64,000 bases of DNA, taken from positions 24,107-88,106 of the forward strand of contig BLSF01000103.1 of assembly GCA_012862575.1 (NCBI GenBank), written 5' to 3'. Made by a program: the position numbers and the translations under genes. The stretch comes from Parietichytrium sp. I65-24A. Its lineage: Eukaryota; Sar; Bigyra; Thraustochytrida; Thraustochytriidae. Below, piece by piece: positions 7,113-64,000 of this stretch. Under the pieces are notes generated by a model. That model saw only the letters and a program-made list of their open reading frames with translations. It was not told the DNA's origin and searched no databases. The stretch's first letter is position 1, and each line of letters starts with the position of its first letter.

Positions 7113-7230
7113 CGCGAAACTGTGGTCTGCAGAGCGTAAAGAGTGTGAAGAGCGTGAAGAGTGAAGGGTGAAGAGTCTAAAGTCGGTGTGCTGCATTGGC
7201 TTGCGAGGAGAGGACAAGATTCAGGCGTCG

Positions 7231-8710: not shown

Positions 8711-8956
8711 CACGCATCTGAAAAGAATGGAGACAGGATGAAAACTTTTGCATTCTGCCGACCTTGCCAATGATTTCGCGTGAGGCTTTCTATGACTGTC
8801 ACTCTCACCCCATAATGCGTTGTTTACAATTTTCTGAATCTACACACTCTAAAGGTGCTAATTTGACGCTCCCTTTCTATAATATTCCAACCAAGCCAAT
8901 CAAAAGCAGCTGGCTCTCTGAGAAACAGGAAACTCGAGACGGTGTGCCCGGCCTCT

Positions 8957-39145: not shown

Positions 39146-41470
39146 CTATTGCGCGGAGACTGCCACGCGAGCCCCCCGGCTATCAAGAAGCTTCCCAGTC
39201 TTTTCAAGCTCGCGAACTCTAGCCTGAGTTGCCAAAGCTAATAGAACTTTTACTTTTCCTGTGCCCAACTCAATACGTTTCAAGGTTCCAAAACGCTCAA
39301 CTACGTAGATATAATCGCCGCTCAGCTTAAGATGCTGTGGCCAAAAGATCGCGCCCTCTCGAGAGTTGGCGAGAACTTCCATTTTGCCTCCGCTCAACTT
39401 TATTCGCGTGATCGTATTCGCATTGCTCTCTGCCCAGTACAGGTATCCACGCTTTCGAAGACTGGTGGTCGAATCGTTAAGCTGGATCGCCAAAGCTGTG
39501 ATTCGGCCTTGCGACGAAACGCGAGCGATCTCCTTCCTCGATTTATCCAACAGATTAAAGCGTATTATCGCGCCTTCTTCTGCGACATAGAGCTCCTGTC
39601 TTGCAATATCGATCGCGAGCCCTATGGGTTGCCTAAATGATCCAGCCACCGCAGTATGTATCAACTTCCCCGACGTTGATGAGACGGGCCAGTCCACTGC
39701 AATGATGCGGCCACTGTTTCGCAGGCTTGCGTATAATATCGAGCAATCCGGTGAAAACAAAAGCGCCGAAGCAATGTCCTCCTTGAAATCTATCGACTGA
39801 ATTTTACTGGAAAACTCCCCGGACTCCACCTGAGCATGCTTGACCTGGAACTTTTTCGCATCGAACCAGGCAAGTGTTTTGGTTTCTTCACACAGGGCAA
39901 GGGACTGCGGAGCTCGCGACGCGACATCCACTTGTACCGTGGAAACCACAGGGTCTGGAAGCTCCTTTCCGTCCCTCTTCCCTAGCACTTGCACTGTCTC
40001 GGCATTGATTATGGAATTCCCTCCCGTGGCCGCAATAAAGTTGGAAAGCACCAATCGCCTCAGCGTACCCTTCAGGTCGTCACGAATCTCGCAAACCAGC
40101 TCCTCCGAAGAAACGAACTCCTCCAAAACACAGGTCCGGTCAAGATTTGGAACCTTTATGGACGCTATATCGAACTCGCCACTGCCAAAACGCTTTCCCC
40201 AGATCCTCAACCGAATTCCTCCGCTCTCTAGCACCTGAAATTTCTGACTCTCCAGTGCGCTATCACTAGATGAAGTTGCTATCTCAGATCCATCCGACAA
40301 GTACACGTCTCCGCCGGAGCTTATTTCCAATCCGTTGAAGTTGTGCAAATCAATTGCACTTCCTTCGGCATATTTTCCGGCGTTATTTGCATTGTGAAAT
40401 TCAGAAAACTTTCCACTTTGCTGAAGACCCTCCAGGCGTTCGATACCGAATCCAACCTGATCTAGAAGGTGGGAAGGCACTTGCTTCAGCAGCGTTGCAT
40501 CTGTATCCGGCAAAGCCTGAGCACCGCTTGAGCTGAAAATTCGAATTGCGCGGACGATTGAGAACTCTCGCGAGGAGTATGTAACTCTGCGCAAAACTTT
40601 GTCGAAGACGCAGGGCACCTGTTTCCAGCCGCCTACGTCCAACTCGTTGGAAGTCTTCATGCACATAAAGTCTTCGCCGTCTGAGGTGACATCAAAAGAC
40701 ATTGAGACCTCCTTTTCGAATGAATGTGGTGAGAGGAGGTGACAGTCGGACGCAGATGTGCGAGCGCTATTCGACATTGCCACAAACACGCAATCGTAAA
40801 CGCGGGCCTGGACCGTTGCTACGACATCAGTCACGGCACCAGCCGGTACCGTTACGGTCAGCCCACCAGCTGTGAGAAGCCCTCCCGAAGATCGGCTGAC
40901 CTCCTGGGAAGTGTGTTGGGATGATAACGATTGGATACCTTCCAACACATTCTCGCGAAGAGATGGATACAAGTTTACAATCTCAGGGGCGATACTCGCT
41001 GGAACAGCAACCAAGGTGCCTAGGTTTGTCGCTCTCAGATCGCTCAGAAGCGTCAAAGTGTCTGCAACAAGCAACACGACCGCACCCCAGTCCTCGCGGA
41101 CCAAATCAACTTGGAGTACTCCAACCAGCACATCTGCCGCATACTCCGGTAAAGATTGGACCAAAGAACGCGCAATGCCTCGGTATAACGAACTGCTTGC
41201 ATTTGTCGCAATCGACGCGATCGTTTCGACGTAGTGTGACTTTTCGGCATCTTCTAACGCGAGGACCAGAGTTTGCGAAGCTTGCGCCAAGACCACAAGT
41301 TTGACGACATCAGAGTCTTCAGCTAGCATCAAGTCACCAAACAAGCTTGGGTCCACGATTACCCCGGAACCTTCGCTTATCGTTTCAAGCAAGGTGGTGA
41401 CCGAGTCCGAAAGTGTCACATTTTCCAGGTCCACAGATGTGTAGTCTGTTTCATTCAGACTATCCTCGTA
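39146..41470 (-). other. Post-GPS soluble tail of the giant protein: helical, ZU5-like, TIG-like, YWTD/NHL propeller
   Basis: About 775 residues follow the GPS. GGLTVTVPAGAV resembles the start of a ZU5 domain. GGIRLRIWGKRFG followed by CVLEEFVSSEELVCEI (about 40090-40240) resembles an IPT/TIG domain. From about 39930 to 39240 there are propeller repeats: ALLFSPDCSILYASL, QPIGLAIDIARQELYVAE, RGYLYWAESNANTITRIKL and QHLKLSGDYIYVVERFG. No hydrophobic stretch is long enough for a membrane helix. The chain ends ARVAVSAQ. Confidence 0.65.
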
Positions 41471-44400
41471 CGATGGCAAAGTGCTGAAATCCGTCAAGTG
41501 CGTGCAACAGCAGCGAGTGAATGAACTGTCGGGCTGTGACACCGTTGTACATCCATCCGAGCTCCACGCCCTCGTTGATTTATTCCAATAAACGCACCGA
41601 TTCTCTACGATGGAAGAGCAAGAGGCTGCGGTTACTGGGAGCTCCATACATATCTTCTCCGAAGCATTGCTGACCACCAGCTCTTCACCACTTGATTGGT
41701 CATACAGCGTGATACTTGCCACCTCCGCGGTCAGGCCACCACCGCAAGCCATGTCGCTGCCACTATCTGTCTCGCTTTCGTATGGATTTTCACCAAAGCT
41801 GTTCATCTCGATTTCCACGACTTGCGCGTCAGAAAACCCTAGCGCGCTTCCGGAAGGAAATTCGACCGCTTGGCCGCCTTTGCCGGCGCTAGTGTCCGAA
41901 GAGGACGAAGGCAACGCCAAAGAACCTAAGCTCGATCCAGTTCGACGAGCAAAGGAGACTTTCAAACTACTTTGATCTGACACGAAAGCGTCCTCGCCCG
42001 CTTCAACATTTTGGAGAATTGCTTTCCTCAATGCGGAAACGCTACTCTTCACAAGCTTCAAGACAGTGTCTGTTTCGTTCAAGTGTGTTGTCGTCGCATT
42101 TCCTTCAAATTTGAACTTGGACATCACATTTGACAAAACCTGCACAACCTTGTGCCCAGTGTTCTCCTCCACCTTCAGGTTATTGAGTGATGAAGTTTTT
42201 GCAAGACTTTCCACCAAGTTGAGCACTTGGACAGTGTCATTTGTTGACATTGTGCTCTGTGCATTACTCAGCTCCCGAACAACTTCCATCGAACCATCAA
42301 TCACCTGCGCAGACGGCTCACTGCTCTTACTTATAGAATCCACCACTGAGAGTATTTGCGTTTTAGAAGATTGGAGATCGTCTTCTGTGATACTTTGGGC
42401 ATTGCGGCTCAGAGCGCTGCTCAGGATAAGTGACTGTTGCAAAATAGTCTCTGTATCAAGCGAGCCGGTAGACATGCTCTCCTGGAGCGCTTGGCCTTCC
42501 AGAGCTATTTCGGATACAGCAAATGTTCTCTGACTGACTTCCACTGAGCGTAAGATGCTAGTTGTCGCTCCATAGCGATCTGCAACGTATACCTTTACAT
42601 AATTTACGCCCGCAGGCAAATAGAACGTTCCGCGTGACGACTTTCCGAAAGGACCAAGTGCGCTTTCTTCGCCGCTCTGAGAAATTCGCGCAAACCGGTA
42701 TTGAAGAGGCATATGAGAGCTTTCGTCCACCCACCCTTCACATTGGATCGCAAATGGCGTACTTAACTCCTCACCGGTGCTCGGCGAAAGCTCACAGCTT
42801 CCTAAACGAGGGGCTTCGTTCGCAACAAACTCGATCTCTGCATATGAAATGTTTGTGCCTTCGTTGTAAGCCTCGCTCAACCGAAAGCGGTATTGGACGC
42901 CTGGAGTTAGAACATTGCCTCGAATGACCAAAGTGCTTTGGGTGAGAGGGGTGCTAAAATAGCTCTCTTGCAGGACATTTCCCGAGACAAAAGCTGAGTT
43001 TGGAATATCACCGTCCACCTGCGCCCAGAGCAGACTTGGAGTAGCACTCGATGAACGGCCGCGTAACACAAGCCTTTCGGAAGGGTTGATGTACGGCAGG
43101 TCCTCCGAAAGCAAGCAACTCTCGCCACATTCGATCGGATCTATGCTGACTTCTGGAGGGCTTCCTTCCAATGTCTCTACATATATTTGGGCCCGTGCTT
43201 CTCGGCCGTCTTTCTCAACCTTTACGCTGAAAACGTACACCATACCAGGACTTAGCTTCGTCGCCAGAACTGTCATGTTCGCACTCCTTTGTGTCGACAA
43301 ATCCAGTGCACCGCTGGTCTCTGCGTCGACACACTGTTTAGAATCGGTGTCGGTCTCAAGAATGCAAGACCATGAGAAATTCAGGAGACTCTCTGATTCC
43401 CCGTCGGGGTCATAAGAGGAAGACGCGTCCAGGAGGAGGTCCCTATCCAATCCGTGTGTGACCCTCCTTCCTTTGGAGATGGAAGCAACGAGTGAGCTTT
43501 GCTCTATCTCTACCAATACAGGACGAGAGGTAGCGCTGTACACTAAATCTCCCTTGGTCACTTCAACCTTGGCTACAAAACGAAAACTTGAGAGCGATGG
43601 GAAAGAAGCACCAGATATGGTCAGAGAACGACTACTTGTATACAAGGCATCATTCTTGACAAGAACTAAAGTCCCAAGGTCCGTACTCATGGTGACGCTG
43701 TTGTCGGCCCACGTTGCTGCGGTGGCGTCTGTGTACCAGGTGTACGTGAAGGAGGTGATCGTCTCGTTTCCAGTTTGATCACAAGGCATGAATTCGCCCT
43801 TGGCCCGCAAGGTCAACACCTCCGATTTGAAAAGGCTTACCAGGGGCGCTCCTTCGATTTCTACGATCGGAAGCGCACCACTTTCTCTGGTTACCACAAT
43901 AGAAGCAGCGTCTGAGTGCATTCCCCAGTTGGTTAATTGAACCGTGAAATTGTACTGTACATCAGCTTCAAGCAACGAGGAATTTATGGTAGCAATAAGG
44001 TTGTCATTCCGCTCGAGGAGAAACTCTTGAAGTGTCTCGAACAAAGCGTCATCAACAACTCCCTCTGCAGACACGCTCCACCCTATCGACCCTCGCACAC
44101 CTAAAACGGAAGTGCTAGCATCCAAAACAAACGTTTGAGTTCCACATCCAACTTTCGAAGGACCGCTCAGTGACGAAATTGGATCCGGAACCTCACCTTT
44201 TACTGACAACTCGGTGGCAGTTTCTTGCATGAAGTCACCGGTATACCCGGCAGCCGTCAAAATACTTCCATCCAACCAAATGTAATGCCCAGGCTCTATT
44301 AGAGCTTCATGGCCAACGTAGAGGAGAAGCACAGTAGCACTCTTCCATCGGCAATGGGTGTCCGATTCGAGGCCAGACCACCCCAACGCGATGCCCACTT

Positions 44401-47400
44401 CTAAAATCGTATCACTTTTATTCGTTGAACAGTCGCCAGTCTCTACGCCAAAAGCAAGGTCGGTACACGTTGGACGGTTTGTATCTTTGGAAAACTCGAT
44501 CTCAATTACATCTCCAACCTGCAAAAATTGCGCCCTGGTGACCACCGGGGCAGACGTGTGGCTAGACTCTGTGACGGTGACTGCAACGTCCCTCACAAAC
44601 ACGCACGGACATGCTACACTGGAGGAGCTGAGGCCAACGTCCATCTGTTGAACAAGATCAGCTTCAACAGAAGATTCCATTTGCTGCAAAGCCCTGTACA
44701 AGACTTGTTCAAATTCAAGCCCGTAGGCCATCAGAACAGCGACGTATTGCATTATTTCCTCACACCCATAAGTGCCAGTGCTCGCTCGCATGTCCATATC
44801 GTAATTTGGGTCTACGTCACTCGACGAGTGATGCTCTATTGTCACATTCAGCAAATTGCCTGCACTACCTTCCCAGACCAGGTCTTTACTTGGTCGGATT
44901 ACTACATTCTGTGCAATTTCCCAGCTTGCCTCATCAAAGACGAAAGTCTCTGGCTCAATCGTGACCTGCTCAACCATGATAGTTTCGAAAGATTTATTGC
45001 CAGAGCACGGGTCTATCCAAGTTCGGGTGATTGGGACCGGTGCGGAAGAGGCAGATACGAGCACAGTCCCAAGAGGCTTCGATGAAAGCCTCACGGAGTA
45101 CATCGCCATGTCGTCTTGAACATCTTCATCCAAGGCAATGACTTCCCCTGATGTATTGATTTGGACCGCCGCCAAGTCGTTATCAAATGACGTGAAATTG
45201 AGATCTATTTCGTCGATCGCTTCCCCGTTCAAAAGAAGCTTCAAGCGCCAAGTTTCTCGCCTGACTGGGGTGGGGTCTTGAATGTCGTCATCAAAGCTGG
45301 GTACAGAAAATTCTATCTCACGGCTCCAATCCTGAACCTCTCTGGAAACGTTGTACACGAAAGTTGATGTGTTGAGAGGCTGCTCCCCCCAGTGCATCTC
45401 CGAGAACCCGAGCTGAATTTGCAAGTCGGCCGTCGGCTTTGAGGTCAAGCTCACATTGACACGCACCTCTTCCCCTTCGACCAAGAAGTATTCAACCACG
45501 TCTGTGTTGATACCTAGGATGTCATCGTCGAAAATCCCAACCTCAAAGTCTTCAAGTCGAGAGCCAGATGCTTTGAGTTCGCTATATGCCGAGTCTTCAG
45601 ACGTTTCCACAGTGTGCCAGAGACGAACTGATCTTGAGTTTGGTCCTGCGTACTCGTCATTTGTAACCGTCACGAGAACGGTTTGAGCTTGAGACCAATT
45701 CGAAGGGCCAAAATGAAGAGTATTTGGATCAAAGACCAGATGGCTGACCGCAAGATTGCAGTCAAGTTCCTCGTCGTACGAAATGCATTCGATTGTGGAG
45801 TCACAAGCCAAGCCCCAATCCATCATCCCAGTAACTGTACTTTGACACACCCCTTTTTGCGATCGAGGAACAATCACCACAACACCCGTCGGCTCCGAAG
45901 TGAGCGAAACAGTATAGTTCGCAAAGCCAGTTCCCTCGTCCAGCTCAAGTCTAGTTGCATTATTTTCGAGCTCAAGATGGGTCACATTAAGGCCTGCAAC
46001 GTCGTTGTCGATGATTGTAACGCGAAGCTCTTTGTCATACACGAGCCGCCCAAAATCCTGGTGTTCAACTGTCAAAGAATGTATAATTTTGACCTCCCGA
46101 GTACCCTGGGCAATCTCATCACTCGGGAGATTGTAGTGCACAGGGAGCGGCTCCCCCAGGAACTCGTATCCAATTTCGTACTCGATTGGGTTGACTGTCC
46201 CGTTGAAGTCCACGCTGCCTTCTTCAGGCTTCGATATTGTCAGCATAATCGTACCATTCAGAGTCTCTGCGTCAAAGTCGATATACAGCGAATAGGTTGC
46301 AACTGCATTCCCATCGTCCACTTCACCGAGAGTTAGAAAGGCAGGCTCAAACTCAAACTGGCCAACGCTGTATGTCGGTAAAAGCGTTGGTGACGCTGTG
46401 GGTGCTTCAGATGGGCTTTGTGTTGGGGTATCTGTTGGAGCACTTGTTGGCGAAAGAGTTGGAGATGCCGTTGGGATATCTGTCGGGCTGCGAGTTGGGG
46501 AAACAGAAGGTGCCGCTGTAGGTGCCTCGGTGGGATGGCTCGTTGGTGATGATGAAGGTGACTCCGTTGGCGCTTCTGTAGGTGATGATGACGGTGAAAG
46601 CGTGGGGTCACTTGTGGGCTCATTCGTTGGTGACCAAGTTGGTCCTGCTGTCGTTGGGGATCTGCTTGGTGTGACTGTTGGCTCCAGGGTCGGCGAGACT
46701 GTTGGCTCCAGCGTTGGGGCTTCCGTGCTTGGCGCTTCAGTTGGTGACATGGTCGGAGAGGAAGAAGGCTGGGCAGACGGCTGTGCTGTGGGAGCTTCCG
46801 AAGGAGACTCTGTGGGGGATTCCGTCGGGATAAGCGTTGGCGAAGAACTTGGGACAACAACTGAAATTTCGCTGGAGAGAAGTTCAGCTGAGCCTGGCGC
46901 TTCGCTATTCGACGCACTCAATACCACTCTAGTGCTCTCAGAAACTTCCAAAAGTAACAATTGCACGAGGAACGAGCCATCAAACTGCGAGGTGACATTA
47001 ACTTCCCATGAGGACTCGGGTATCGGCTCCAAATTATCACTTGATACGTCCCATTTGACTGCAACATTGTCTGTTATGCGATTCTCATAAAGGTCTTGCA
47101 GAGACAGCGAACAGTTGATCGTAACGCCAATCCAACCATCCGAGTCGCACAGTAGTGTAGAGTGAGCTACTGCCCAGCTGTCTGGCACAACACTCATCGC
47201 AAAAGATCCAATCTCGAAAGTGCCGTATGTGATGACCAACGAGGCTGGCCCCGCAGATGACAGTACCCCAACAAGACGGTAGAGACCATTCGAGATGTAA
47301 CTGACCTTGAGAGTGTCAATCTTCGAGGCATTGCCATCTTGGATGCCGATGGCAGGAAGCTCGAATTCGTTCCCGCTAAGGCTGCCATTCACATCTCGTG

Positions 47401-50400
47401 CAGTGAGAAGTATACTGAACATTTCGCCAGCAACAAGTGTCTGCGAAGCTGGCTCTTCCAAAGTTGCATTGCACAGCGCAGGCTCAATGCTTCCCGGCGA
47501 AACGTCCACGGATTCTGAAAAATCATTCAAGGACACAGTCAGTTCACAATTTGACGTACACGTCTCGGAATGGAGTTCATAGAGTCCCACAATTCCTCCG
47601 GATTTCTTGACTTCGTAAGACTGGGTTCCCGATACGCTGTTCTCAACCGAGAGTAAAGTCGTCATATTCTCTACTTCACCTAAAGTGTTTCCGGCCAAAT
47701 TTCCAAGCTCGTCTTCAAAATACAAGGTACACACCAGTGAGGCATTCGTTACCGTTTTTTGCGGGCAATCCATTTCACGTAATTTCACTGGTTCGAGCGG
47801 CAGTACCTCCATCGATACAGATTCTCCAATCACTGAATTAGACGCCCCGTAGTATACGGTGACGGTGCCCACCCCTGAAAGAGTCGAGTTTTCAAATAAT
47901 AGCACATAACATTGGCTCTCGTTTGACATTGTCGAGTTTGGTGCCAGCTGCGTCAGCGATTGATCCGAAGAGCTTTGCACAGTCGTCATTGACCCTGATA
48001 ATCCAAGACCACCAGTCTCGCTCCAGATGGGGTTGCCGTACGCATCACTCAGCTTGATGCAGCAACTCACTTCACTCCCGGCGACAACAGTAGGGCTACT
48101 CGCATTCCTGCCTCCACACGTGACCTCACTATTGAGGGAGTTCACAGATCCCGCAACTACCGTTACGGTGTGCCCTTCGCTCATCTGCACACCTGCCAAG
48201 ACTCCCATCAAATTTACCGACGATGCAATAAACAGACTTAGACGAACAGAATAGATGCCGGTGGAAACGAACTCCACCGCATTAATAGTGGTGCTCTCAT
48301 CACCGATTATTCTGATACCATACACATCCGACTCGTTGCCACTTTGCTCTCCAGAAGAGTCTTTAGTGAACACTGTGCACATCATGTCCTCTCCTGCTGT
48401 GACCTCATCAGGGCAAATCATAGTGGACTGGGTCGCGCTAATTAAGCTTTGAAAAATGTGTACAGTCCAGGTTAAATTGGTTGCTCCTGCGACCATCAAA
48501 GTCACCTCGACCTCATTGGGTGCCGACCCGGACTCCAACCAAACGACTATTTCTTCACTTTCCAAAAACCAGCTCCAAGCGTCCAGGATATCCTTGCTAG
48601 AGTTAGCACCATTTGTGGTCAAGCTCAGCAAGGCTTCGTACCCTTCTGTCGACGGGTTTCCAAACGAGTCACTAGCAGAAATATAACAAGGGAATGTCGC
48701 GTTAATTGGTGCGCTTTCCACGCAATGCATTGCAACCGACTTCGGATCCAGCTGACCAGGTCCAATGGCCAAAGTTCCCTGGTATAACAAACTTGATTGG
48801 TACGAAATCTCCACACCCAGGTCTGCAAAGGAAGTATTCGAGAAAAGTACAACGGAGAAAATCCCGGTCTCGTTTCCGTACATGACATCCACCTCAATGG
48901 CGCTTACACCCCCAGACCCCTGGAGTACGACTTGAAAGGCGTCCAAGTCTGCTTCACTACCGGATGGATTCCCGCTTTCATCCCTCGCGTACAAGATGCA
49001 GTTAACAGGGAGTCCAACAGTTCCGTCTGCGCAAATCGCGGAGCTCTCTTCTGCAGCAATAGGCCCAGCCTGAACAGTAACAACCGCTGGTGTCACATCC
49101 TGAACAGTGGCATCGGACAAAATCCTCCTTCCAGACACCCCAAGAAATTTCACTTGATACATACTTTCACCAGCCGTATTAGCCAGGGCCCCGCTCGAAA
49201 AGACACCTCCAGCAAAGTGTGTATTCAGCGCTGATTGGCGATCTTCGGTGTCAAGACCTGACAGGTTCGTTGCATGGGCAGGAACTAGGGACACTGCAAT
49301 GGCACCAGCTTCATATGCTTCACCGACGATGGACCCATCCGCACCGTAGCTCACCGTAGTACAGGTGATTCCCCCACCTGCAACTGCGTCTTCTGAGCAA
49401 AACGCTTTGGAGTTTTGCGGGTTTACCTTGCCTTCTAGAATTTCTATGTGAGCGGGCTCTGAATTTTTCCCTGCTATCACCAGGGTCACTTGAATCCCTC
49501 CCAGTTGCAACGGGGTTACATCGTCAAATGCGACAATGAAGACTCCATCCGACAACCGCTTGGACACTTCCAGAACTCCAAGCAATGGAGAGATGGACGG
49601 GTCCGCAGTATTCGTTGCGACGGCTTGCACGACTTCCAGGAACCTGTCGTCCGTGATGACGTTCGAAAAGGGATCGACTAGGCTCAATTCGCAGAGCAAA
49701 GGTGTTGCATATGGATGGCTCAAAGGACATGACAATGTTGAGAGCATGGCAGATGGCGTAGCCGACAAAATCTCTACGAAGGCTGGGGAGCCTATTTCTA
49801 CACCGGCATACATTGCAAGGATTGTTGCATTGGATGCGCTTTCCTTCGTGGTTATCGAAAATTGGAACCTGCCCCAGCTCGACTTCGACACAGAGACGTT
49901 GGCGAATCGACTTCCAACCAGCGCACCTGCCTCTTCAACATGAGTGATGGATACTTGCTCCAGGTCCACATTCTGCGAAGTGGGATTTCCAAAAGCATCC
50001 CGAAACTTTGCAGCACATAAGAGTTCCGATCCGGCGACTACACTCGCAGCTTCACATGTGAAAGAAGATTTACCAAAATCAACTTCCGCTGGTTGAATTC
50101 CCAAGGTGGCGACCGTCAACCCGTTGAGGGAAATCAGGGCAAAGCCAATGCCCTCAACGCCGCTATAGGTGGGAGTGAATGAAACTGCAAATTTCCCTGT
50201 TGAGAGATATTGCACGGACGTTACAAGCGTCTGCCCTCCGTTATTTACCAACAAAGCTACACTTGGTCCGACCGCTGCATCTCCGACAAGCTCACCAAGA
50301 TCGGAAATCAAAGACATAGTACACGTCACGAGAGATCCGGCTGAAACTGTTTCAGTTGGGCAAACAATGAAAGACAGCTCCTCATTGAATGTGAACGGGA

Positions 50401-53400
50401 CAGCCAAAGTTGATGCGCTGGCGACTTGCTCAAGTTGATTTTCAAGAGTAGACGACGCCCCGCTAAGAGTAATTTGAACAAGTCCTTCTACCTTGGGTCG
50501 AAACGCAAGTTCCCAGGACTCTGGTCCACGAATCATCCGATATGGCACAAACTTTTCTTGGACTAAAACTTTGGCAGACAATTTTGCGTCACTTGGGGCG
50601 ACCTGGGTGTGCGTGAGTGCATTCGAATACGAATCATACAGGTAGACAAAGCATCGGCCCTCGCTTCCTACCATTACCTGGTCAGGACACTTCACATCGG
50701 TGTAATAAGGATCCACGGGCCCACCCTCAAATTCAAAGGACCTCTCTATCCATTCGTTGGCTAAGGAAGTTGCGGTATCCCGTAACGCGAGCCGCACGAG
50801 AACAGAACCAATAGTTTTGACAAACAATCTTAGTGTCAACTTGCCCTCTGAGTGGTATGTGAGCTCGCTGTGGCTCGATTCTAGCGTGGTTGCTCCGCCT
50901 TCGATCGAGATGGTGACGTCACCTACTGATTCACTTGTGCCTGCAGGATTTCCGTACCTATCCCTGAGATGGATAAAGCAAGAGACATAGTTTCCTACGC
51001 GAAAGATGTCTTCCGCGCTTGCATTCGTACTTTGCTTGACGACTCCCCCATAGAATGAGTCCGCGTCTGCGCACGACAAGTATGAGGTAGTCAAATCCGG
51101 TGAGCTAGCACCGACCGAGAAAAGAGCGACCGAGGAGTCGTACCATTGTCCGGACTGCTGAATGCTCACGCTCAATTTTGCATTCCCGCGTCTTATGGGG
51201 TCAAGCTGAAGTAGAAAGACTCCTGTGTTTCCCGAGAAATGCACACTAGCGTCGGAAACAAACCCACCATTCCGCACCTTTGCCTTAACTAGAGAGAGAG
51301 CGCTTTCGCCCCCGGATAAAGCGTTCTCCGAGGTGCGAAGCTGCAATTGGCAGGTGATTACATCACCTGCAGACACGGCAGTTTTCACAGGGCATAAGAG
51401 CTCACAGTTCTCCGGGTCAAGCTCCACCTGAGAAACTTGAATGTTCCGAATCCCTGAGGGGCCGTACTTCAATACAAGCGTACCGGGCTGGTTCACTCGC
51501 ATTGCGAATCGAAATCTGCCTATTTCACCTGCAAACTCTCGGTTTACATTCACGATCTGAGCTCCTATTGTTGCAGTCGCACTGATTCGCAAAGCATCTT
51601 CGCTGGTTTGCCCCGTTGGATTTCCGAAAGAATCCACCGCAAGGCAAGCGCAAACAAAGGAGGTTCCGGCAAAAACTGATTCCGGGCATGCAAAGGTAGA
51701 CAGTTCATAATCTACCTCTCGAAGTGGTGTCACTTGAAGAGCAAACTTCACTCCCAAGGCAGAGCCCATGTATTTCACTTGAAGCGTGGTGTTTCCCGCT
51801 TTCTGTAAAATTAGGTCGCAGGAAAACACTCCAGCTGCTGAGGTAGCTTGGACCTGTGCATCGGAGATAGAAGTTGCCCCAATCGAAAAGCTTGGAGCGT
51901 CATCTTCCGAACCAGCAAGGTTTCCAAGGGAATCCTTAGCGTAGAGGAGGCAGTTAATCGACGAGCCAGCTTCTATGGAGTTTTTTTCGCACCACAGATT
52001 GGATCGCGCAGGGTCGATAATTCCCGGCAAAACAGTGACTTCTGTGAAACTGAGACCCTCTTGGGTACCCATAGCAGCCCCGAGGTATTCCACGGATATT
52101 GTTGCCTTGCCAGTGTAGAGCGGCTGCAACTTGAACTGAAACAGGCCAGAGTATGCGAAGGTTACCTTGGACGAATTCAGGGGCAATCCAGCGTTGCGAA
52201 GTTTTGGCACCAGCATGCTCGCCAGTCCCGGATCCTCAATGAACGACCCTTCGACGTCGTACAACAAAATGCTGCAAGAGATCCAGTCTCCGGCCGTGAC
52301 AGTATCTGCGGAGCATACATGAAAAGACCGCTCAAGATCCACCTGAACGGGGATTATTTTGACTGTCAATCCAGAAGGCGCTGTTACAGTCTTGCGTGAT
52401 GCCGCCTGAGAATTCGATCCGACATACAACGCCACAGTGAAATTGGTCTCCATACTCACTGCTGGAAGGTTTATGAGCCCAATATGAGTGTCGTCACCAG
52501 GAGTTGTGCTTGAGACTTGCTCGATCACACCGAAATAGTCGCCGTACGTTGGATGGGAGCCATGTAACGTAATGTACTCGCTAGAAAGAGGTACAGGGTT
52601 ACCAAATTTATCTGCAAGTGATATGTAGCATTTCAAAAGGTTGGACTCGGAGGGGCAGGTGACTATGGACGACTCAGGGTGCACTTCCGCGCTTACAACT
52701 GTTACATATCCCTCAGGCGGAGCGCGAACTTTCCCCACTGCAAACTGCAGCTGGACTGCCCATTGACCACTCCTTTCTGCCCCATCGATTGTTGCCTGAA
52801 AACGAAACGCTCCTCCACCATCTGCCAGAGTAAGATTGGTCACCAGGCCCTCAGTTTGACCTTGGGACGAATGATACGCCGACACGTACAAACTAGAAGA
52901 CGCGGTGAGCGAAGTGATTTGGTTCGAAAAAGCATCCCGCAGATTCACTTTGCAGGGAATTGCAGACCCCGCGTCTACCGTCCTAGGACACTTGATATCT
53001 GATGCCGAGAGAGCAATTGCCCCCGCAGAGACAGATATACTTGGGCTTGCAAGTGGCAACACCTCGCTGTTCAAGAGCACCTCGACGGTCGAAGACCCTG
53101 CTCTTCGTGGTCGAAAAACAGCTTGTAGAACCCCCTCTTGTAGAACTTGAGTTCTCTCAGGATGGACCATTTGCCCAGACAAATTCATCCGAACTAATAT
53201 GGAAGAGGCAAAAAACGCCGCAGCTCCAAACCTTTTCCCGTCACTTAGCCTTGACTCAAATGTACAAGTGACAGTTGCATTTGCAGAAACCGCACTCGCG
53301 TCACAGCTAATATGAGAACTGGCCGAAGACAACGCAACCTCTTTTGCTTCAATTGTTTGCGTCAGTATCCTGCTAAGATCCTCCTTGAGAACTGCTGTTA

Positions 53401-56400
53401 CCTCGACACTTTGAGCCGTTGAAGGGAGCCAGACCCGAACCATAAGCTTCGAATCCCGAACTTCCAAGCTCCCAAACGCGAATGAACCCGTCTCCAGCCC
53501 TCTGCCCTGTACAAGCGCGCTCCTCAGCATGTCTTCGGATGCAGTGATGTTACTAATCAAGTTTTGAAACTCGTCTCGAAGAGTGAAGGTGCAGAGCACC
53601 GAGCTTGAGACATATCCTTCCTGTGGACAAAGAAAGTCTACATTTGGGCCATGCAATTGCCCTGGGTAAACTTTGAACTCGGCGGACCCTTGTACTTGCT
53701 GAGCGGTTAGACGGGCCGTTATGCGCCAGACTCCACTATTTGTTGCATTTCCAACCACAAAATAGTCTCCATCACTTGACTGAGCAATTTCCATCGCTTT
53801 ACTGGTTCCCGAAGAATGCGCTGCCACAACACTGAGTGCTTCTTTGTTGAGCCATGCTGAAGGAAGCTCGTTTGCATAACGATCCAGCAAAGTCACCTTG
53901 CATCGCACAGAGCTAGTCGCAGAAATTGAATCTTCACATGCTAGCTCCAAGTGACTGGCTACACGAAGTGGTGCAAATGTCGCCGTGAATGCGGAACCGA
54001 TTGCTTTTTTCTCGGTCTGCGTAGCTGCATAGAGAACGCGATAAAAGTATGTGGACGCTTTGGTGGGGGACATCGTCAAGCCGAAAGTCCCCTTTCTAAC
54101 GAAAGAGATCGCCATTTCGTTTGCGGTCACACTGCGCCCATCAGAGGCACGTCCAATGACTTCGAATTGTGCCAACGAGTCTTGGCCACCAACGAGTTGC
54201 CCCGTTGTAGATCTCAACTGAATAACGCAATTCACAGATTCACCTACAGTAAGGGAACCTGAATCGCATTCGAAGGTGGACAGTCCCTCATTAATTTGAA
54301 TGGGCGAAATTTGGACGGTCTGTACCCCATCACCAATAAGGACTCCAGCATCAAAGGCAGAGACTTGAAGAACCTCAGCAGTGACCGGAGAAACAAACGT
54401 CGCCTGAAAAATCCCTTGAGACCAATCGTAAGAGACCAAGGGAATAATTAGCCTGCCGGAGTTTTCAGCTCGCACTGACACCTGGAGCGCCTCAGTGTCA
54501 TTGCTAGGGTTTTTGTACTTGTCCACCGCTCTGATAGTACAGGTGACCCGCGCAGAGCCTTCTCCTTTCTCTGGGCAAACAACACTGCCCAGGGAGGGGA
54601 CCGAAATTCCTGGCAACAGATTGTATGTTGCGGAGGAGAATATTTCAGAGGAGCTGCTTAACGAGAAATTCCAGCTACCAGCGGCGCGTAGGACACCAGC
54701 ACCAAACTCAGCAAAGAGAGATGTCCCCGAGTTGCTAACCTGGACGAAGTGACTCTGTAAAGAAGTAGACGCACGAACCCGAAGTGCCGTGCTAAGCACC
54801 ACTTGGCTTGCACTGATCTTGTTTCCAAGCGCATCGCGAGCTTGCACCTCACAATGGACAGGTTCGCCACTCTTCATGTTACCACCGCCTGGCTCATAGC
54901 AATTAAGATTGGATTCTTCCCACGATGGAAGTCCCGCCTGCACAAGAAGCGGAATGGCCGGAAATGCACTATTTTCCATCGATACAAGAAGCTCGACCTG
55001 GCTGGCAACCTGCGGGGTGAATCTAATAGAATAAAATCCACTTCCAAGCTCCCCAACGTACTCAAGCGAAGCGAAGTCGTGCGGCTGAAAAACGACAGTC
55101 AGTAACTTTAAAATGGCAGAGCTGCTTATGGCCTGCCCATCGTGATCTAGCAGCCAGACCACGCACTGTGACGATATACCAGCCATCACAGTGGAGCTGG
55201 AGCATAAGACCTGCGACTTTGACAAATCGACACTAGGATTCTCGACCGTGACCTTAACAGAGCTCTCGCTACCCAGAATTGCGATTTCGAGAGTTGTGAA
55301 TGACCCAGAGTCACTTGAAGGAAAGGGTGCTGAAACATAGAATCGATCATCCAACTCGGAGTCTGCACTTGAGATCACAGGGAAGAATTCCCGCTCGTCG
55401 GCAACGCCGACAATAGAGAGTTGTCCCACATCTGTAGCCAGATTTCCGAAAGCGTCCACAGCAGTTAGCTCGCAGCGCAGTTCCGCCCCTGCATAAATAA
55501 CAGAGGGGCACAAGAGGGAAGAGTACAGCGGGCTTGCTGGCAATGCGAACACCGAAAACCTTGGCATATCACTGAACTTCGCATCCTTATACAGGGCAGA
55601 TACCTGAAACGATCCAGATTCCAGAACAACGTCCTTGCCCCAAGTAACTCGGACTGATCCGTCATCTTCGATCTGTATCTCGCTTGCCCGATAAATGCTA
55701 TTATCCGATTCTAAACTTGACATCGACACTTGAAGGTCCGCAATATACTCTTCCGTGGCGGATATAAAGTTCTCGAATCCGTCCTGGAGCATCACAAAGC
55801 AAGTGACCTGTTCTCCAACGCTTTGGCCGTCCATTCCAGCGCAATCTAGAGAACTTCTGTCCGCAGAAAACTCGCTGGGCGAAATTGATAGCTGCGTTTC
55901 CAATACCAGACTGTGCGAGATGGTAACTCGAAGTTCAAATTCGCCGGACAACGTAGAATTTAGGCCAACCAAAAACATACCAGTGCTCACGAATGACACG
56001 CTCGATGAAATGACAGCTGAGCTGACAGCATACCCCAACTGATACATTTCGACAACCATTAGCGACACCATACCTTCATCACCAGATAGAAGTCCTGCAC
56101 TGTCATAAATTCGGACGAGTGTATTGACCACGGTACCTGCCGCGGCATGGGAGCCCTCAAGCCGCCGTGCCGTGGAAAGTTGCGGCACAATTTCGATGGA
56201 ACAAAGCTCCGCGTTGGGCTCGAACTCCTCCACACCAACCGTCACAACGTCACCAACTGCCTCAGCACCGTACTGCACCACAATCTCAATACTTGTAGAA
56301 CCAGAAGGCACCTGGAGAGTGGCAATGTACTCTCCAAGCTTGTGCAATTTTGGAGTTGCGTACTTCTCCGTTGTACTGTTCGCCTTTACAATATTTCCAA

Positions 56401-59400
56401 TGAGGAATAGGGAGTCGACCAAATTGTTTGTCGGGTTTCCGAACAAGTCAAAGCAGTACAGCTTGCACGAAAGTGTGCTCTGGCTTTTCACCGTCTTAGG
56501 GCAATCTACGACGCTTTGCGACGCATTAAAATTTGTGGGGGATACACTAAACGGTACGCTGATTGCGTTGCCCCCAATCTCAACATTGGCTAAATACTCC
56601 CCTGCTTTTTGGAATTGAGACAAAGTAAGAGTCAAGGTGGACTGAGAGATATCAGAATATAGCCATTCTGATGTCACTCTGGCCCCAGAGAGAGCGTCAC
56701 TGACTGCTGTCTCAATATCAAGCGATTGAGTTGAGCTTCCATCATCGTAGCGATTCCCAAACGCATCTTGCAGAACGACCATGATGTCCAGATTCTCCCC
56801 GGCGACAACGCTAGAAGCAAGGAAGGCACTAGAACCATCTATCTTAGGCGCACCTGGGATGACGGTGAATGTCTCCGAGAAAGCCGCTTCAGTCCCATCG
56901 AGAAGAAGTGCGACTGTCACATCCCCAGCGTTGGTTAGATTGAAATTGGTACCAAACGATAAACTCTCCACATGGTAGGCACCGCTTCCTTTGGTTATAC
57001 CAGATCCTAAAGTCGCCCTTGCCGAGAATCGTGAAGAGATTCCCTCCAGAAAAGACCTCTGGGCCGAAGATCCGAGGTCTTCGAGATCAAAACTCAGAGT
57101 CTCGAGCTGAACACTAAAGAAGCATTGTAGGAGAACGGGAGCCGTAAGATCCGCACAAGTACACTGAAAGGTGCCTGCATTCACACGAACAGGGACGGGT
57201 GCGACCGCGATAACAAGTGAGGTTGTATCAGAATCCTCGTTGCGAATGAGACTTGAATTGATAGCGGCTTCGAGTCGAAAGCTAGTAGAGGTTTGGACAA
57301 CCGGGAGGTCCAAAATTCCAGCAATGCCGCCGTCAGATGTTCCGTGGGCAGTGCCCCAGACGAGTGGAGAGCTCCCATCTAATGCAAACAAGCGCAAAGA
57401 TATTTCCTTGGTCTTCACATCCTGTAACGACAGTGCATTGGAAAACCTGTCCACAAGATTCAGATGACAGTTCAGGGTACTTCCGCTTGCTGCATTCCCC
57501 GGACACGAGAACGAGCTTGTAGCAATACTCACTGGCCCGGGGGCCACTATTGTCGTGAGTGTGGCAATCTCAAGCGAATCGGCCCCATCACTAAGAAACC
57601 AAGGAAATGTGTATTCTCCTGCGGTCTCAGTCATACCTGATACCACAACTTTAGCGTCATAGCTCCAGATGGAGCCAAACCATGTTTTACTGACCTCTGT
57701 AGCAATCTCCGGACGAAATTGTGCGAACCCAAGACGTTGAAGAGTCTCCTCTGAGCCCGCTCGGTTACCCCACTCATCTTTAAAGAGCAAAGTGCAAGAA
57801 ATATCCTCTCCACTAATCACTTTGGGGGAACATGCCAGCGCAGATTTAGCCGCAGACACCTGAGCTGCCACAACGTTTGGACTGATACTCGTAGAAGTGA
57901 GATTCTGATAACGGATGTTGAGTGGCCATGTCGCAGAGTCGCCCGAGTAAGTCACTCGCAGGGATGCAGGCGAACTTACTCGTACGGCGCGAAACGAGAA
58001 TTGAAACACTCCTCGCTCAATGAATGTCACGTCCGCTACTGGAGATCCGTCCCATAAAATTAATACATTGTCAAGAATAGAGGGTTCTCCGACAGCCTCA
58101 AAATCTTCATCAACAAGTTGAACGTCACAAGAAAACACCGTTCCTGCAGTTGCAGCAGCTGTGAGCGCAGTGGAGGAGCACACTACAGCCGATGCTGCGC
58201 TGTTGACGTTCGGCTGAATCACGTCAACGCGCACCACAGGCACGGAAGCAAGAATTTGACCGTTATACAAGACATCAATGTCCGCTGTTCCCGGACGTGA
58301 AGGTGCACTTAGAGTACTTCGAAACAGTCCAGTGGTCGTTTCGCTCTTTTCGAGCGGAAACCAGCTTTCACGCTGTTCTGAGGAAGTCTCATTTGACCAG
58401 GAGCTTACATGCACAAAGAATGCCGAGCCGGTGGCCAAGCTTGAAGTCGGGTTTTGATGTGCGTCAAAAACCCGAAGCTCGCATACAAATGTTGAGGCAA
58501 CTACCACGTTAGAGTTCCCGCTTTGGCAGGAGAAAGCGGAGTAATTCAACTCCGCGACCCCAGGAAGCACTTTGAGAGCCACATCTCCAAATAAGATTCC
58601 AGCAAAGTAAGCCCTCAAGGACAGCTCGCCAGACCTGAAGACACCACCGACTTCCACTACTCCGCCCAAGTTTGTGCTCTGGTCCCAAGTAACTGCAGTA
58701 GTAGCCATGTCATCAGAGTTTTCAAAGGTAACAAAGTCCAATGTATCGCGGGACCCCGCTCGATTTCCGAAAGAATCAAAAAGCGATATGGAGCAACCGC
58801 GAAAGACATCCCCAACGCTGAACACAGAAGCCTCGCAACTCAGGTTACAGCTGAGAGGATCAATAGCCCCTGGCTGAACTGCAAGCTGAAATTGTGTTGA
58901 AAAAGGGGCTCCTTCAAAAGCAAACCCCAAAGTCTCCAACCCAGATTTCTTAGGGACAAGAGTGGCTCTGTATACCCCGCTTTGAACGTACTTCAAAGTG
59001 TAGGGGATTTCGATTGGAGTAGAGCTGAGCAGCGCGTAAGGTGCAATAGCAGACAGGAGGTTTTCATTCCCAACGTACTCACCGCTCAAGTTTCTGAGAT
59101 ATATGAGACAGTTGACGGTGTTGCCGGCCACGAGACTTCCTGAGAGAGGAAGGGTACAATCAACCGTTGATGCATTCGTAGAGATTTCCAAAGCGTTTAC
59201 CGGCACAAAAGCGGCTTCTCCGATGGATTTAGAATCGACGTATGCAAACACTTCGAGGACGCCAGCTTCTTTAGGCAGACGGTAGGTCGAATACCATGCA
59301 CCGTCGGAGCTCTGCTGCGTAAAGGCGAAGAGGGTCTGCGACCCCGCACCCGATGCAAAGGTATAATTGCCTTTTGCCACGACGCTCTCCGACTGGATAC

Positions 59401-62400
59401 TACTCAGAGAGTTTCCGTAGGAATCCCGAAACTGGAAGGCGCACCTCACCTCGGTTCCACTGATCATACTGGTGGGGCAAACCAGCGCGCTTCTGGAAGA
59501 CGACATTGTGCCAGGGAGAATATTCAGGTATCCGACCCGAGGAAGTTTTGAGCCGAGATACGAGACAGATATGGACCAATTTCCGGCGGCTCGAATGCCG
59601 GTGAAAAGAACATTGACGGTGCGAAGATTATCACTCCACACTAATGAGGACACTTTACCATTAGTAGCCCCGCTCACAGCATAAGGAAGACTAGCGCTGA
59701 ACGCGTTTGAAATGTTGGTCGCACTGACTTTGTTGCCAAAGACATCACGTGGCGTAATATAGCACAGGGGAATGGTATTTGAGCTGCTGAGATCTGCAGA
59801 AACCGAAGAGCACGAAACGTCTGTTCTCTGGATACTTATTGGCCCAGCACGGACTTGAAAGCTCGAAGAGGAAATCTCCAGAGCCTCTCCGCTAGCTTCG
59901 GCAAATTTCAATGACGAAACCAGCGTCCCGCTAAACTTTGGAACGAAAGAAGTGTTGTAGGTCCCAACACGAGCGTAAGTAATGTTGAGCGCTTCGGTTA
60001 GACCGCCACTCCGGATCTGCCAAATGAGTTGCCTGCCCAGTGAAGAATCTCCAACTAAACTCCCGGTCTCATCGCGGGCGTAGAATAAACACGAAACCGA
60101 TTCCCCTGCAATGATCCAGTCTTGGTGAGAGCACGCCCACTTGGACATCCCTATCGATATCTTCACGGGAATCACAATCACTTCCTTACTTGAAGAACTG
60201 GAACCAATCGGAAGTCCATTTAGACTAACACTGACACTCATGTTACCCCCCGATGCCGGCGCAATGATTTGCGCCACCAACTGAGAGTCCAGATACTTTA
60301 CCGTGCCGATAATTTTCTCTCCGCTGGTGAACACTGAGGTCGCCGCAAGCCCAGTTGAGTTCTGTAACACCTGGTTGGAGAACGCGTCCTTTAGGGTGAT
60401 GACACATTGTAAGACCGCTCCTCCAGAGACAACAGATGGACACTGAAACAAGCTATGTGTCGAGGATGGCTGTGCAGCAGAAATGGTGATTTGAAGTTGG
60501 CTACGGGTGAGGTTGAATGCCTGCCCCCCCAAGGTCGGCACACTATTGTAAGTCCCAGCCTGAGTGATGTTACGAAAGGTTACATAGGCATCAGCGGTCG
60601 CCGATTCCTCGGATGCCCAGCTAAACGCCATCCCCGACTTGCTCAAAGTGGGTTGATTCCAAGAGATTGTCTGGAGAATGCTCTCATCAGCTTTGGCTTT
60701 ATTGCCGTACTTGTCTTTGAAGGTGATTCCACATTTGACTTGGTTCGACTCAGAAGCAACAAATGCAGAAGTGGGGCATTTTATTATAGACATCGATGCA
60801 TTCGCTTCACCGGAGATGAAATCAACGTGAACAGCAGGGGCGAGGAACTCTGGCGAAAACAGAGAACGGAGAGCTATCTCGGCAGTTTGCGCGAAGTGCG
60901 ATGTTAAGGTGAGACCGAACAAGCCCAAAGACATAAAGGCGATTTGGCTTTCTGGCTGCGGGCCAGCGGTGACTACGACAGTTTCAAGGGCTTCAACGAG
61001 AGCCTCGGTACCCACCAAGTCGCCCTGGTCATTTCTAAGCGTTAGCGTACAGTACAAATGTTCATCTACTGAGTGCTGAGATTCCCCTGAGGAAGCCGCG
61101 CAGAGAAAGGTTGAAGCATTTTCAGACAACTGTAGCGGAAGAGCTGTAATGACGTCCATGTTTTGCGCAATGCTGAGATATGTAGTGCTTAGTAGAACAG
61201 TTGCGGTGTAATTTGACACCATGTAAGGAACTTTCCAACGAGCCACGAAAGTAGCGCAAAACGAAGACCCGGTGCTTAAAGCAGCGGGTATTGGGCCATA
61301 AGAGCACGAGCTCTCAAGACCATACTCGATCGTGTTTGTCAATGGGTCGATCAAGGCTATTCTCGCGCTGTGATCCTCGTCTCCTGCCTCAACCAAATAG
61401 CCATTCAATTGCCCAGTGCCAAGCAGCTGGGAAGGATTGCCGAACGCGTCTTTCGCAGCAATATAACACCTGGCTTCGGCCCCAACATAAATTTCTTCAA
61501 CGCAGGCAAATTCAGATGCCAATGCGGACACTTCGCCGGCGTCTACTCGAGCGTATATCTCTGCCCTGTTGCCGCCTTTCACGACTTGTCCATCGAGATA
61601 CGCCTTCACCGTCCAATTGCCGTGAATTTCGAGAGGGCCAAGTCTTGCACTGGTGTCTGTTGCCTGGGCTGGCTTGACAACGACAGCATACCCCGTGAGA
61701 GTGTGGCTCGCAACAAAGCGGAGCTGAAAGTCGCTAGAGCCATCGACGATATTTCCGTATGGATCTGTCGTCTCCACAATACAGTCCAGATGCTCACCCG
61801 CAAAGATTGACAACTCGGGGCCTCCAGCACATTCGAGGATGGAGTTCTCCGCAGAGGGTGCAGAAGCCTCGACGTGGAGGTCTATTTGGTTTGAGTCCAA
61901 TGTCGAAGGACCGAGTGTAATCGTTGCAGCAAGTTGTGCCTCGCCAGCCCGGGTCAGCTGTGTGTACACTGAGTAGAACCCGGCCTCATGATAGAGCATG
62001 TTTTGATCGCTCTCAAAAACATCGCCTTCGTTTGTGATCAGGATTGCAAGCGCGCTCAAAAGTGTCTCATCTCCAGCGAGTTGTAACTCGGAGTTGTAGA
62101 CAGATATGGTGCAATTGACGCCACCGCCAGCTACAACAACTACCTCGTTGTGACATGTTAATTCTATGTGATGCACGACAAATGGGATCACTTCGACTCG
62201 GAAGAATGCCGAATTCAGTGCTTGGTTGTCGAGGAGAACTTCCACTGTTACATTACACGCCAAGTAAGGAGCATCAAATGTGATTGCCAAGCTTTCCACT
62301 CCAGGCACCACTCTCCCAACGCTAAAGTCTTCGCCCCAGGCTGCAGAGCCCTGAAGTGCGCCAAAATTGAGGGTAGAAAAGCCAAACTTGTCAGCAAGCT

Positions 62401-64000
62401 GAACCTCGCAAAAGAATGCTGCTCCTCCTGACGCGGTAATGGGACAGCTGAAAGTACTTTCCGATGGCAAAGCGCTTCCGGCCACTAAGGTAATCATGGC
62501 AAACTCGCTGAATGGCACGGCATCGTAGGTTCCAAGCACTTGAAGTGTACCCAAATATTGACTCTGCCACGACGTTTCAGCAAGAATGACTCCGTCACTT
62601 TCCAAAATCTCAACAGGGAGGACGACCGGTGCATTTTCTCCTAGAACAATGCCAGAGAGACCAAATTTGTGCCTGTCTAGATCCTCAAGGGGAATTTCAT
62701 TTCCATACTCGTCACGAACATAAAGTTCAAGCTGGAACACATCCCCTGCAGCTATCAATCCAGATTTGCTGTCACCAGAAAGGCTCGCTCCAGAATGCGA
62801 GGCGCTCGGCTGGTCGTGGGTGACCTCGTAGGAAACTGATGCTGTTTTCAAGGCCAGCTCTCCGAAATAGACTTGCAGTGTCAGCTGCCCAGAAACTGTC
62901 GGAGCGAAATCGAAAGAAAAATAGCCATTGTACCCGTAAAGTATAAATCGTACACCTTTCGATCCCCGTTTCCGGACTTTGAGATCACAGAGAGAGCAGA
63001 GGTCACCGAATCGTCTCCTACATGACCACCTTGAGTATTAACGAGTTCAATCTGGCATGCAACAGGACTGCCTGCAACAACTAATGTGGAGAGGTTTTTG
63101 TCGCAGGTCAACGTTGAACGAGAGGAGTCTAGATCGACTTGGCTCACCCCTATTTTCACCGGGGATCCGCCAAGCGACACACCCTTTCTGTCAGTCACAG
63201 ACAGCGTGAAGTTTCCAGGCAAATTATACCGAATCTGAACCAAAGTTGAGGCTGATTGGTTGGTTCCGGAAACAATCTCTGGAACCTGAGCTTGGCCAGA
63301 CTCTACATGCACTGCGTACATGATGACGTCAGACAGCTCGTTTATGGCATTCCCAAATGCATCATACAGAGTTAGTGTGCAGATCGATTTTGTGAGAGCC
63401 AAAACCTCCGTTGCGCATTCAACGAATGAATTCATGGGAGAGAGGGCAGCAGGTGATATTGAAAAAGTCGTCCGAAGGCTCTCCACTACAAGAGACTGAA
63501 TGTACAAGGTCGCCGTCCACGATCCAGACTCAAAGGGGAGGAACGCAAAGACATACTCAGCGCTACTTTCGTTTTGGGGTGATAAAACCAATCTCTGACC
63601 AGAAGAACCCAGAAGCTCTAGTTGAAGGGTGCTCGCGTCGACAGAGAACGAATCAGAAAGCGTTGAGATGAGAGTTGCAGTTATACTCATCCTTTCTCCC
63701 GCAAGTAGAGAACCGCCTGGATTGACCCACAATCTCGACATCTCCAGAGAAAGTTCAGCAGAGAGAGTTGGCGCGGTTGTTGGCGATGCCGTCTCGCGCT
63801 CTAAATTCAAGCACCCAACATCCGTCGCGTTGCCACTGCAATAGTCCATCACATACTCTTTGCACGCCTCTGAGTTTACATCCTCGATACACTTGTCAAA
63901 CTGGCAAGGAGATCCATCTGCTGTTTCGTTGAATGGGCACATGTCCACTTTGGAAGCAGTCGGTGCGCTTGTATGAATTGGTGACATTGTTGGCCACCGG
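39146..64000 (-). CDS. Giant secreted multidomain surface protein (Ig/filamin-like repeats, REJ, GAIN/GPS, beta-propeller), partial, with one frameshift
   Basis: The gene enters from the right edge and ends at 39146, coding for more than 8,280 residues without a detectable intron. The frame changes once, near 62933-62935. Domain order from the visible N-terminal side: Cys-rich segment; about 52 Ig/filamin-like repeats of roughly 108 residues; PTxSP linker; four Calx-beta-like repeats; PKD/REJ-like region; helical GAIN-like region with GPS; TIG-like domain; YWTD/NHL-like propeller. Paired cysteines in most repeats and frequent NxS/T sites indicate a secreted, glycosylated protein. No transmembrane segment is seen in the visible part, so it may be a cell-wall, scale, ectoplasmic-net or adhesion component, or be anchored at the unseen N-terminus. 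REJ plus GPS recalls polycystin-1 and sea-urchin REJ proteins, but the membrane channel part is missing. No orthologue is recognised. Confidence 0.85.
41470..42540 (-). other. GAIN-like region with GPS autoproteolysis motif
   Basis: Helical, Ser-rich sequence (LQQSLILSSALSRN, VVRELSNAQSTMS) precedes a beta-rich part ending in the GPS: CVYWNKSTRAWSSDGC, then CCCTHLTDFSTL. Two tryptophans, four or more cysteines and the HL-T cleavage tripeptide (codons at 41492-41500) are all present. In GAIN domains the bond between L and T is cut by the protein itself and the two parts stay joined. Confidence 0.75.
42540..44200 (-). other. PKD/REJ-like region of the giant protein
   Basis: Beta-sandwich segments with PKD-type features occur here: CGTQTFVLDASTSV, RDLLLDASSSYDPDG, SERLVLRGRSSSA and a final PAGVNYVKVYVADRYG. 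This order upstream of a GPS matches REJ modules in polycystin-1 and sperm receptor proteins. The match is by pattern only. Confidence 0.6.
44770..46366 (-). other. Calx-beta-like repeats of the giant protein
   Basis: About four repeats of 110-140 residues end in DND-, DDD- or DND-type acidic turns (VTIIDNDVA, VGIFDDDIL, FTSFDNDLA) and contain YTVSLTSEPTG, VNVSLTSKPTA and YSVRLSSKPLG. This is the usual Calx-beta pattern, often calcium-binding. Confidence 0.65.
46370..46855 (-). repeat. PTxSP-type low-complexity linker in the giant protein
   Basis: About 160 residues are almost entirely S, P, T, E and A in units such as SPTESPTEAPS and SPTLSPT. Such linkers are common in secreted proteins of stramenopiles and are likely heavily O-glycosylated. 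Antisense frames over this segment are repeat artefacts. Confidence 0.9.
46865..63745 (-). repeat. Array of about 52 Ig/filamin-like protein repeats with period three
   Basis: I counted 49 repeats in the frame below the frameshift and three above it. The common core is C-P-x(5-9)-AG-x(3)-V-x-C, then L-x-D-x-FGN, then a G-x-[YF]-x(3)-F strand and a PG- or AG-ending strand. Every third repeat lacks the D-x-FGN turn and has G-x-LVG(D/N)xxL instead. Units are too diverged to appear as DNA repeats. Confidence 0.8.
62931..62940 (-). other. One-base frameshift in the giant gene
   Basis: Above this point the frame reads GDRKVYDLYFTG and then meets a stop at 62881. Below it the adjacent frame reads YNGYFSFDFAPTVSG, which is the next strand expected in the repeat. 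The change falls at a CCC run (62933-62935 on +). No intron fits. Confidence 0.8.
63746..64000 (-). other. Cys-rich and PT-rich segment at the visible N-terminal side of the giant protein
   Basis: Coding runs through the window edge (RWPTMSPIHTSAPT). A short segment with six cysteines follows (MCPFNETADGSPCQFDKC, then ACKEYVMDYC and VGCLN), then SPTTAPT, then the first Ig-like repeat. The PT motifs at the edge suggest another linker continues upstream. Confidence 0.6.

What the first reader, a model, noticed from the sequence alone, without database searches (positions are those of the whole stretch)
39146..64000. Intronless gene of more than 24.8 kb coding for a giant multidomain surface protein
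One reading frame, broken only by a single-base shift, covers the last 25 kb and still continues beyond the window. Other genes here have introns, so the lack of any in 24.8 kb is striking. The domain set (Ig/filamin-like array, PTxSP stalk, Calx-beta, REJ, GAIN/GPS, TIG, propeller) is one I do not recognise as a named family.
Basis: partly seen in the sequence, partly recalled or inferred. Interest (0 to 1): 0.85.

Follow-up and report, generated by a model that had tools for sequence, protein, structure and literature searches.

The report
Giant intronless Ig-rod adhesin-like gene
A protist genome carries a gene with no introns coding for a probably secreted protein of at least 8,300 amino acids, a rod of 52 Ig-type domains ending in a sperm-receptor-like self-cleaving module; a sister gene keeps 45 of those domains in the same order and adds a membrane anchor.

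Summary
One minus-strand frame of 7,963 codons (39146-63037), coding-like in every 500-codon block, continues after a single-base shift near 62,929 to base 64000. That base is the end of contig C103, not just of the window. C65 very probably holds the start: a signal peptide and Cys unit ending in the same 46-bp motif. A fibrillarin gene bounds the 3' end.

The protein (at least 8,284 aa, 880 kDa) has Cys-rich unit(s), 52 Ig domains in an A-B-C triplet cycle, a Pro/Thr/Ser stalk, REJ, a GPS with a canonical HL|T site, and an LRP-type propeller. No transmembrane helix was found. Calx-beta and TIG were not confirmed.

A paralogue on C38 (6,234 aa, one exon) shares signal peptide, Cys units and 51 Ig domains, and has a transmembrane helix. 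45 consecutive domains match one to one (27% identity, no gap over 21 aa). This argues strongly against a repeat-driven join in the array. The Ig domains fold like FdeC/invasin and filamin, and match Chlamydomonas FUS1.

Being intronless is less special than claimed: many neighbours are single-exon, and another frame has 16,052 codons. Most likely this is a long secreted adhesin with an autoproteolytic base; gamete recognition is plausible but untested.

The parts
39146..63037 (-). main open frame of the giant gene (7,963 codons plus stop at 39146-39148)
62884..63999 (-). 5' part of the same gene in the neighbouring frame; runs off the contig end
62920..62935 (-). single-base frameshift point inside Ig repeat 3; probably a sequencing/assembly slip 1 kb from the contig end
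   Evidence: Ig-repeat residues continue on both sides
63808..63939 (-). CPF-type Cys-rich unit; 46 bp of it recur at 93% at the end of contig C65
46862..63750 (-). array of about 52 Ig-like domains (about 108 aa each, conserved Cys pair), A-B-C triplet supercycle
46370..46861 (-). Pro/Thr/Ser-rich (PTxSP) stalk
   Evidence: (PF04886)
   Evidence: negative
42491..44008 (-). REJ domain
   Evidence: (4e-69)
41477..41599 (-). GPS motif of a GAIN-type module; predicted cut HL|TDF, new N-terminus at about 41494
   Evidence: (PF01825, 7e-11)
40523..41437 (-). unassigned region after the GPS (helical, then ZU5/GAIN-B-like by eye)
   Evidence: no match
39917..40225 (-). possible TIG domain, by eye only
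   Evidence: no match
39149..39916 (-). C-terminal YWTD/SGL-type beta-propeller
   Evidence: SGL 1.7e-6; LRP4 3.5e-8
37566..38654 (+). convergent single-exon fibrillarin gene that bounds the giant gene's 3' end

Best explanation
A single-exon gene for a secreted, very long adhesin-type protein. Shown from sequence: a signal peptide (if C65 is the 5' part), Cys-rich unit(s), a rod of about 52 Ig domains with a conserved Cys pair, arranged in about 17 triplets, a Pro/Thr/Ser stalk, REJ, a GPS with an intact HL|T site, and an LRP-type propeller, with no transmembrane helix found. Inferred: the rod (about 200 nm if each domain adds about 4 nm) holds the Cys-rich tip far from its base. The GAIN-type module cuts itself, leaving an N-terminal fragment of about 7,500 aa (counted from the contig end) non-covalently held by a C-terminal fragment of about 780 aa. 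The propeller end docks on a membrane partner; the transmembrane paralogue on C38 or the three REJ 5-TM proteins are candidates. Order of likelihood for the role: general cell-cell or cell-substrate adhesion, then gamete recognition.
For: Frame and coding signal. Signal peptide plus Cys unit on C65, reading towards its end and sharing the 46-bp motif at the start of C103. REJ 4e-69 and GPS 7e-11, with His-Leu-Thr as in cleaved adhesion GPCRs (consensus in PMC13197933). Propeller matches LRP4 at 3.5e-8. Ig triplet model pLDDT 90.4; best structural match the FdeC adhesin, Z 19.6, rmsd 5.9 over 289 residues, then invasin, InvD and filamins; sequence profile hits FdeC 7e-34 and FUS1 4e-15. The paralogue has the same Cys head and rod plus a clear TM helix. 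45 domains are collinear over 4,700 aligned residues with no gap over 21 aa, so rod length has been conserved.
Against: No expression, localisation or binding data. The C65-C103 join is inferred, not assembled. Ig rods of this type also serve structural, non-adhesive roles (filamin, S-layers). GPS cleavage is predicted from the motif only. How the protein is retained at the cell is unknown. A second fold job for the C-terminal region failed (pLDDT 31.5).
Confidence: 0.6

Rival explanations
1. A gamete-recognition protein: the FUS1/GEX2-like Ig rod binds the partner gamete and the REJ-GPS base is the trigger, as in sea-urchin REJ proteins.
For: Array matches Chlamydomonas FUS1 (4e-15) and the GEX2 Ig domain. 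REJ and GPS present. Ectocarpus has a male-gamete REJ-GPS protein with 6-7 TM (PMC4700764). CFAP74 on C65 implies a flagellated stage.
Against: The same profile hits bacterial FdeC far better (7e-34), so the Ig match is not specific to gametes. The fusogen HAP2 was not found, though that search had no positive control. REJ is also in non-gamete polycystins.
Confidence: 0.25
2. A structural component of the extracellular coat, scales, ectoplasmic net or flagellar hairs, in which the rod is a building strut and not a receptor.
For: Rod length conserved between paralogues; no membrane anchor; filamin and S-layer Ig similarity.
Against: REJ-GPS and propeller are typical of receptors and ligands, not of struts. 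The OCM3 match lies only in the low-complexity stalk.
Confidence: 0.2
3. Assembly artefact or two genes joined: the array and the REJ part belong to different genes, or the C65 start belongs to a third paralogue.
For: The gene runs off a contig end, has a one-base shift 1 kb inside it, and the paralogue has the rod without the REJ part.
Against: One uninterrupted frame and uniform coding signal across the rod-REJ boundary; no DNA self-similarity in the array; paralogue array collinear. For C65, the Cys-unit search found only C65, C103 and C38.
Confidence: 0.07

Closest known systems
Bacterial inverse-autotransporter/invasin adhesins (FdeC, invasin, InvD)
   Same: Rod of Ig domains of the same fold; best structural and sequence match of the array
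   Different: Those are beta-barrel-anchored bacterial proteins; here a eukaryotic signal peptide, a conserved Cys pair in each domain, about 52 domains, and a REJ-GPS end
Chlamydomonas FUS1 / plant GEX2 gamete adhesion proteins
   Same: Filamin-like Ig domains detectable by profile (FUS1 4e-15; GEX2_N family)
   Different: FUS1 is a single-pass protein far smaller than this; no REJ, GPS or propeller; the match is not specific, as FdeC scores better
Polycystin-1 / sea urchin REJ / Ectocarpus Esi0130_0068
   Same: REJ followed by a GPS with HL|T-type cleavage site
   Different: No transmembrane helices after the GPS; the end is a propeller; a 52-Ig rod precedes the REJ
Filamin and titin
   Same: Long ordered Ig arrays; titin also has super-repeats of domain types (from general knowledge)
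   Different: Those are cytoplasmic and intron-rich in animals; this one is secretory and single-exon

Membership tests
REJ-GPS (polycystin-1-like) receptors | REJ domain | tested here: met
   PF02010 4e-69
REJ-GPS (polycystin-1-like) receptors | GPS motif with cleavable tripeptide | tested here: met
   PF01825 7e-11; HL|T present; cleavage itself not testable here
REJ-GPS (polycystin-1-like) receptors | transmembrane helices directly after the GPS | tested here: not met
   No TM-like hydrophobic segment in the frame after the GPS, and fibrillarin follows within 0.5 kb; three other REJ genes of this genome have five candidate helices there
FUS1/GEX2 gamete adhesion proteins | FUS1/GEX2-type Ig domains | tested here: met
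   FUS1 4e-15; GEX2_N in 10 of 29 triplets
FUS1/GEX2 gamete adhesion proteins | single-pass transmembrane anchor | tested here: not met
   present only in the C38 paralogue
FUS1/GEX2 gamete adhesion proteins | gamete-specific expression and role in attachment | not testable with these tools
   no expression data
Invasin/FdeC-type Ig rod | linear array of invasin-type Ig domains | tested here: met
Invasin/FdeC inverse autotransporters | N-terminal outer-membrane beta-barrel | tested here: not met
   N-terminus is a signal peptide plus Cys units; rests on the inferred C65 join for the window gene, direct for C38

The most novel reading that the evidence does not exclude
A two-gene system of matched-length giant rods: a secreted, self-cleaving REJ-GPS form without a membrane anchor and a membrane-anchored sister without REJ-GPS, whose 45-domain register has been kept since duplication because the two rods pair side by side or face each other across a fixed gap of about 200 nm.
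Probability: 0.2. Interest if true: 0.75.

Novelty: new variant of a known kind. Interest (0 to 1): 0.58.

Why it matters
A GAIN-type self-cleaving site without a following membrane domain would separate the module's chemistry from its usual receptor role. A domain register held over 45 Ig repeats at only 27% identity is unusual, since repeat arrays commonly gain and lose units; it suggests selection on exact rod length. The gene pair also gives a testable case of very large single-exon genes in a protist.

Tried and rejected
An intron at the frameshift: the sequence on both sides encodes the conserved part of the Ig repeat, so it is not intronic. A tandem GAIN domain after the GPS: profile comparison gave probability 0.3%. 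Calx-beta and TIG: no match in Pfam or NCBIfam; Calx-beta also none in the PDB by sequence. Flagellar-hair protein: the OCM3 hit covers only the PT stalk. Thraustochytrid marker PfaA: not over its cut-off, and light-harvesting proteins not found, so the lineage stays open. 18S search failed or found nothing. HAP2 not found, uninformative. Fold of the C-terminal 763 aa without relatives: useless model.

Full report
Observation. The minus-strand frame 39146-63037 has 7,963 codons without a stop. Upstream, the neighbouring frame is open to base 64000. The frames meet near 62,929, within an Ig repeat whose conserved residues continue on both sides. A 38-nt GT-AG reading there is possible on paper, but it would remove the most conserved part of the repeat. 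The simplest reading is a one-base slip 1 kb from a contig end. Codon usage trained on neighbouring genes scores the claimed frame positive in all 16 blocks of 500 codons.

Ends of the gene. The window is G000:C103:24107-88106 and the contig ends at 88106, so the gene runs off the contig. On C65, the minus strand reads into the contig end with a signal peptide (MRSGAIPVCFGLLLWVSG), a Cys-rich unit and the start of a second one; its last 46 bp match C103 at 93%. The linkers next to the shared motif differ, so the two ends are probably neighbouring units of a near-identical array. The C38 paralogue has such units as 222-bp repeats at 93%, which is the kind of sequence that breaks assemblies. The join is inferred. 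At the 3' end a single-exon fibrillarin gene on the plus strand stops 0.5 kb away, leaving little room for further exons.

Anatomy. The assembled part is 8,284 aa and 880 kDa. A profile made from the repeats finds about 52 Ig domains of about 108 aa. Similarity peaks at lags 3, 6, 9 and 12 in this array and in the paralogue's, so the unit of the rod is a triplet. A model of one triplet, made with 29 aligned triplets, has pLDDT 90.4. Its best structural match is FdeC (Z 19.6, rmsd 5.9, 289 residues), followed by invasin, InvD and filamins. By sequence profile, FdeC (7e-34) and FUS1 (4e-15) are the only hits better than 1e-10. Then follow a PT stalk, an unassigned region, REJ (4e-69), a GPS (7e-11) with CTHL|TDF, an unassigned region and a propeller related to LRP4. 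No hydrophobic segment resembles a transmembrane helix.

Paralogues. C38 carries a 6,234-aa single-exon gene with signal peptide, seven Cys units, about 51 Ig domains, PT stalk, one strong TM helix and an acidic tail. Domains 8-52 here match domains 7-51 there one to one: mean score 31.7 bits on that diagonal (domains 2-52), against 19.5 (maximum 25.5 in 5,000) when partners are shuffled within the same triplet position. The block aligns over 4,700 residues at 26.6% identity with no gap over 21 aa. So no domain has been gained or lost there since the duplication, in either gene. At the N-terminal end the register is less clear. Three other genes (C38:266k, C10, C35) have REJ followed by five hydrophobic segments; the GPS is clear by profile on C10, borderline on C38 and not listed for C35. 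They resemble the Ectocarpus REJ-GPS protein with 6-7 TM (PMC4700764). The window gene therefore looks like a fusion of the giant-rod type with the REJ-GPS type, minus the membrane part; the direction of the fusion is not known.

Introns. The striking feature is size more than the lack of introns. Neighbouring GDI, Na/H exchanger and fibrillarin genes match most of their domain in one frame, and a frame of 16,052 codons exists on C4 (open over the 18.9 kb examined).

Mechanism. Shown: domain content, order, motif for self-cleavage, conserved register, missing TM helix in the window gene. Inferred: secretion, cleavage, docking through the propeller, adhesion. Gamete recognition is a reasonable special case (REJ, FUS1-like Ig), but the Ig match is better to a bacterial adhesin, and there are no expression data.

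Novelty. Each part is known; the combination, the missing membrane anchor after a canonical GPS, and the conserved 45-domain register between a secreted and an anchored giant are not something I found described in the papers searched. That library holds only part of the literature.

Noticed in passing
L049, L051, L052 (G000:C4:762000-780899): Part of an open frame that the genome search reports as 16,052 codons, with PA14 and filamin-type domains; if one gene, a 48-kb single-exon gene for a protein of roughly 1.7 MDa.
   Followed up: partly
L044, L045, L046: Three REJ genes in frames of 1,881-2,869 codons with five hydrophobic segments after the GPS region; the one on C35 (L046) has an N-terminal multicopper oxidase fused to REJ.
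   Followed up: partly
G000:C66:8562-22499 (not fetched): A 5,583-codon frame with repeated ketosynthase-type matches, probably a multimodular polyketide or fatty-acid synthase in one exon.
   Followed up: no
window 37726-37942: GC-rich period-12 repeat coding a glycine/arginine-rich part of fibrillarin.
   Followed up: no
window 33169-33308: Perfect 68-bp unit in 2.1 copies; not examined.
   Followed up: no
L004 (C65:1809-4439 and 5642-10000): ABCG-type transporter (probably with an intron) and CFAP74 next to the putative gene start; CFAP74 implies a flagellated stage.
   Followed up: partly
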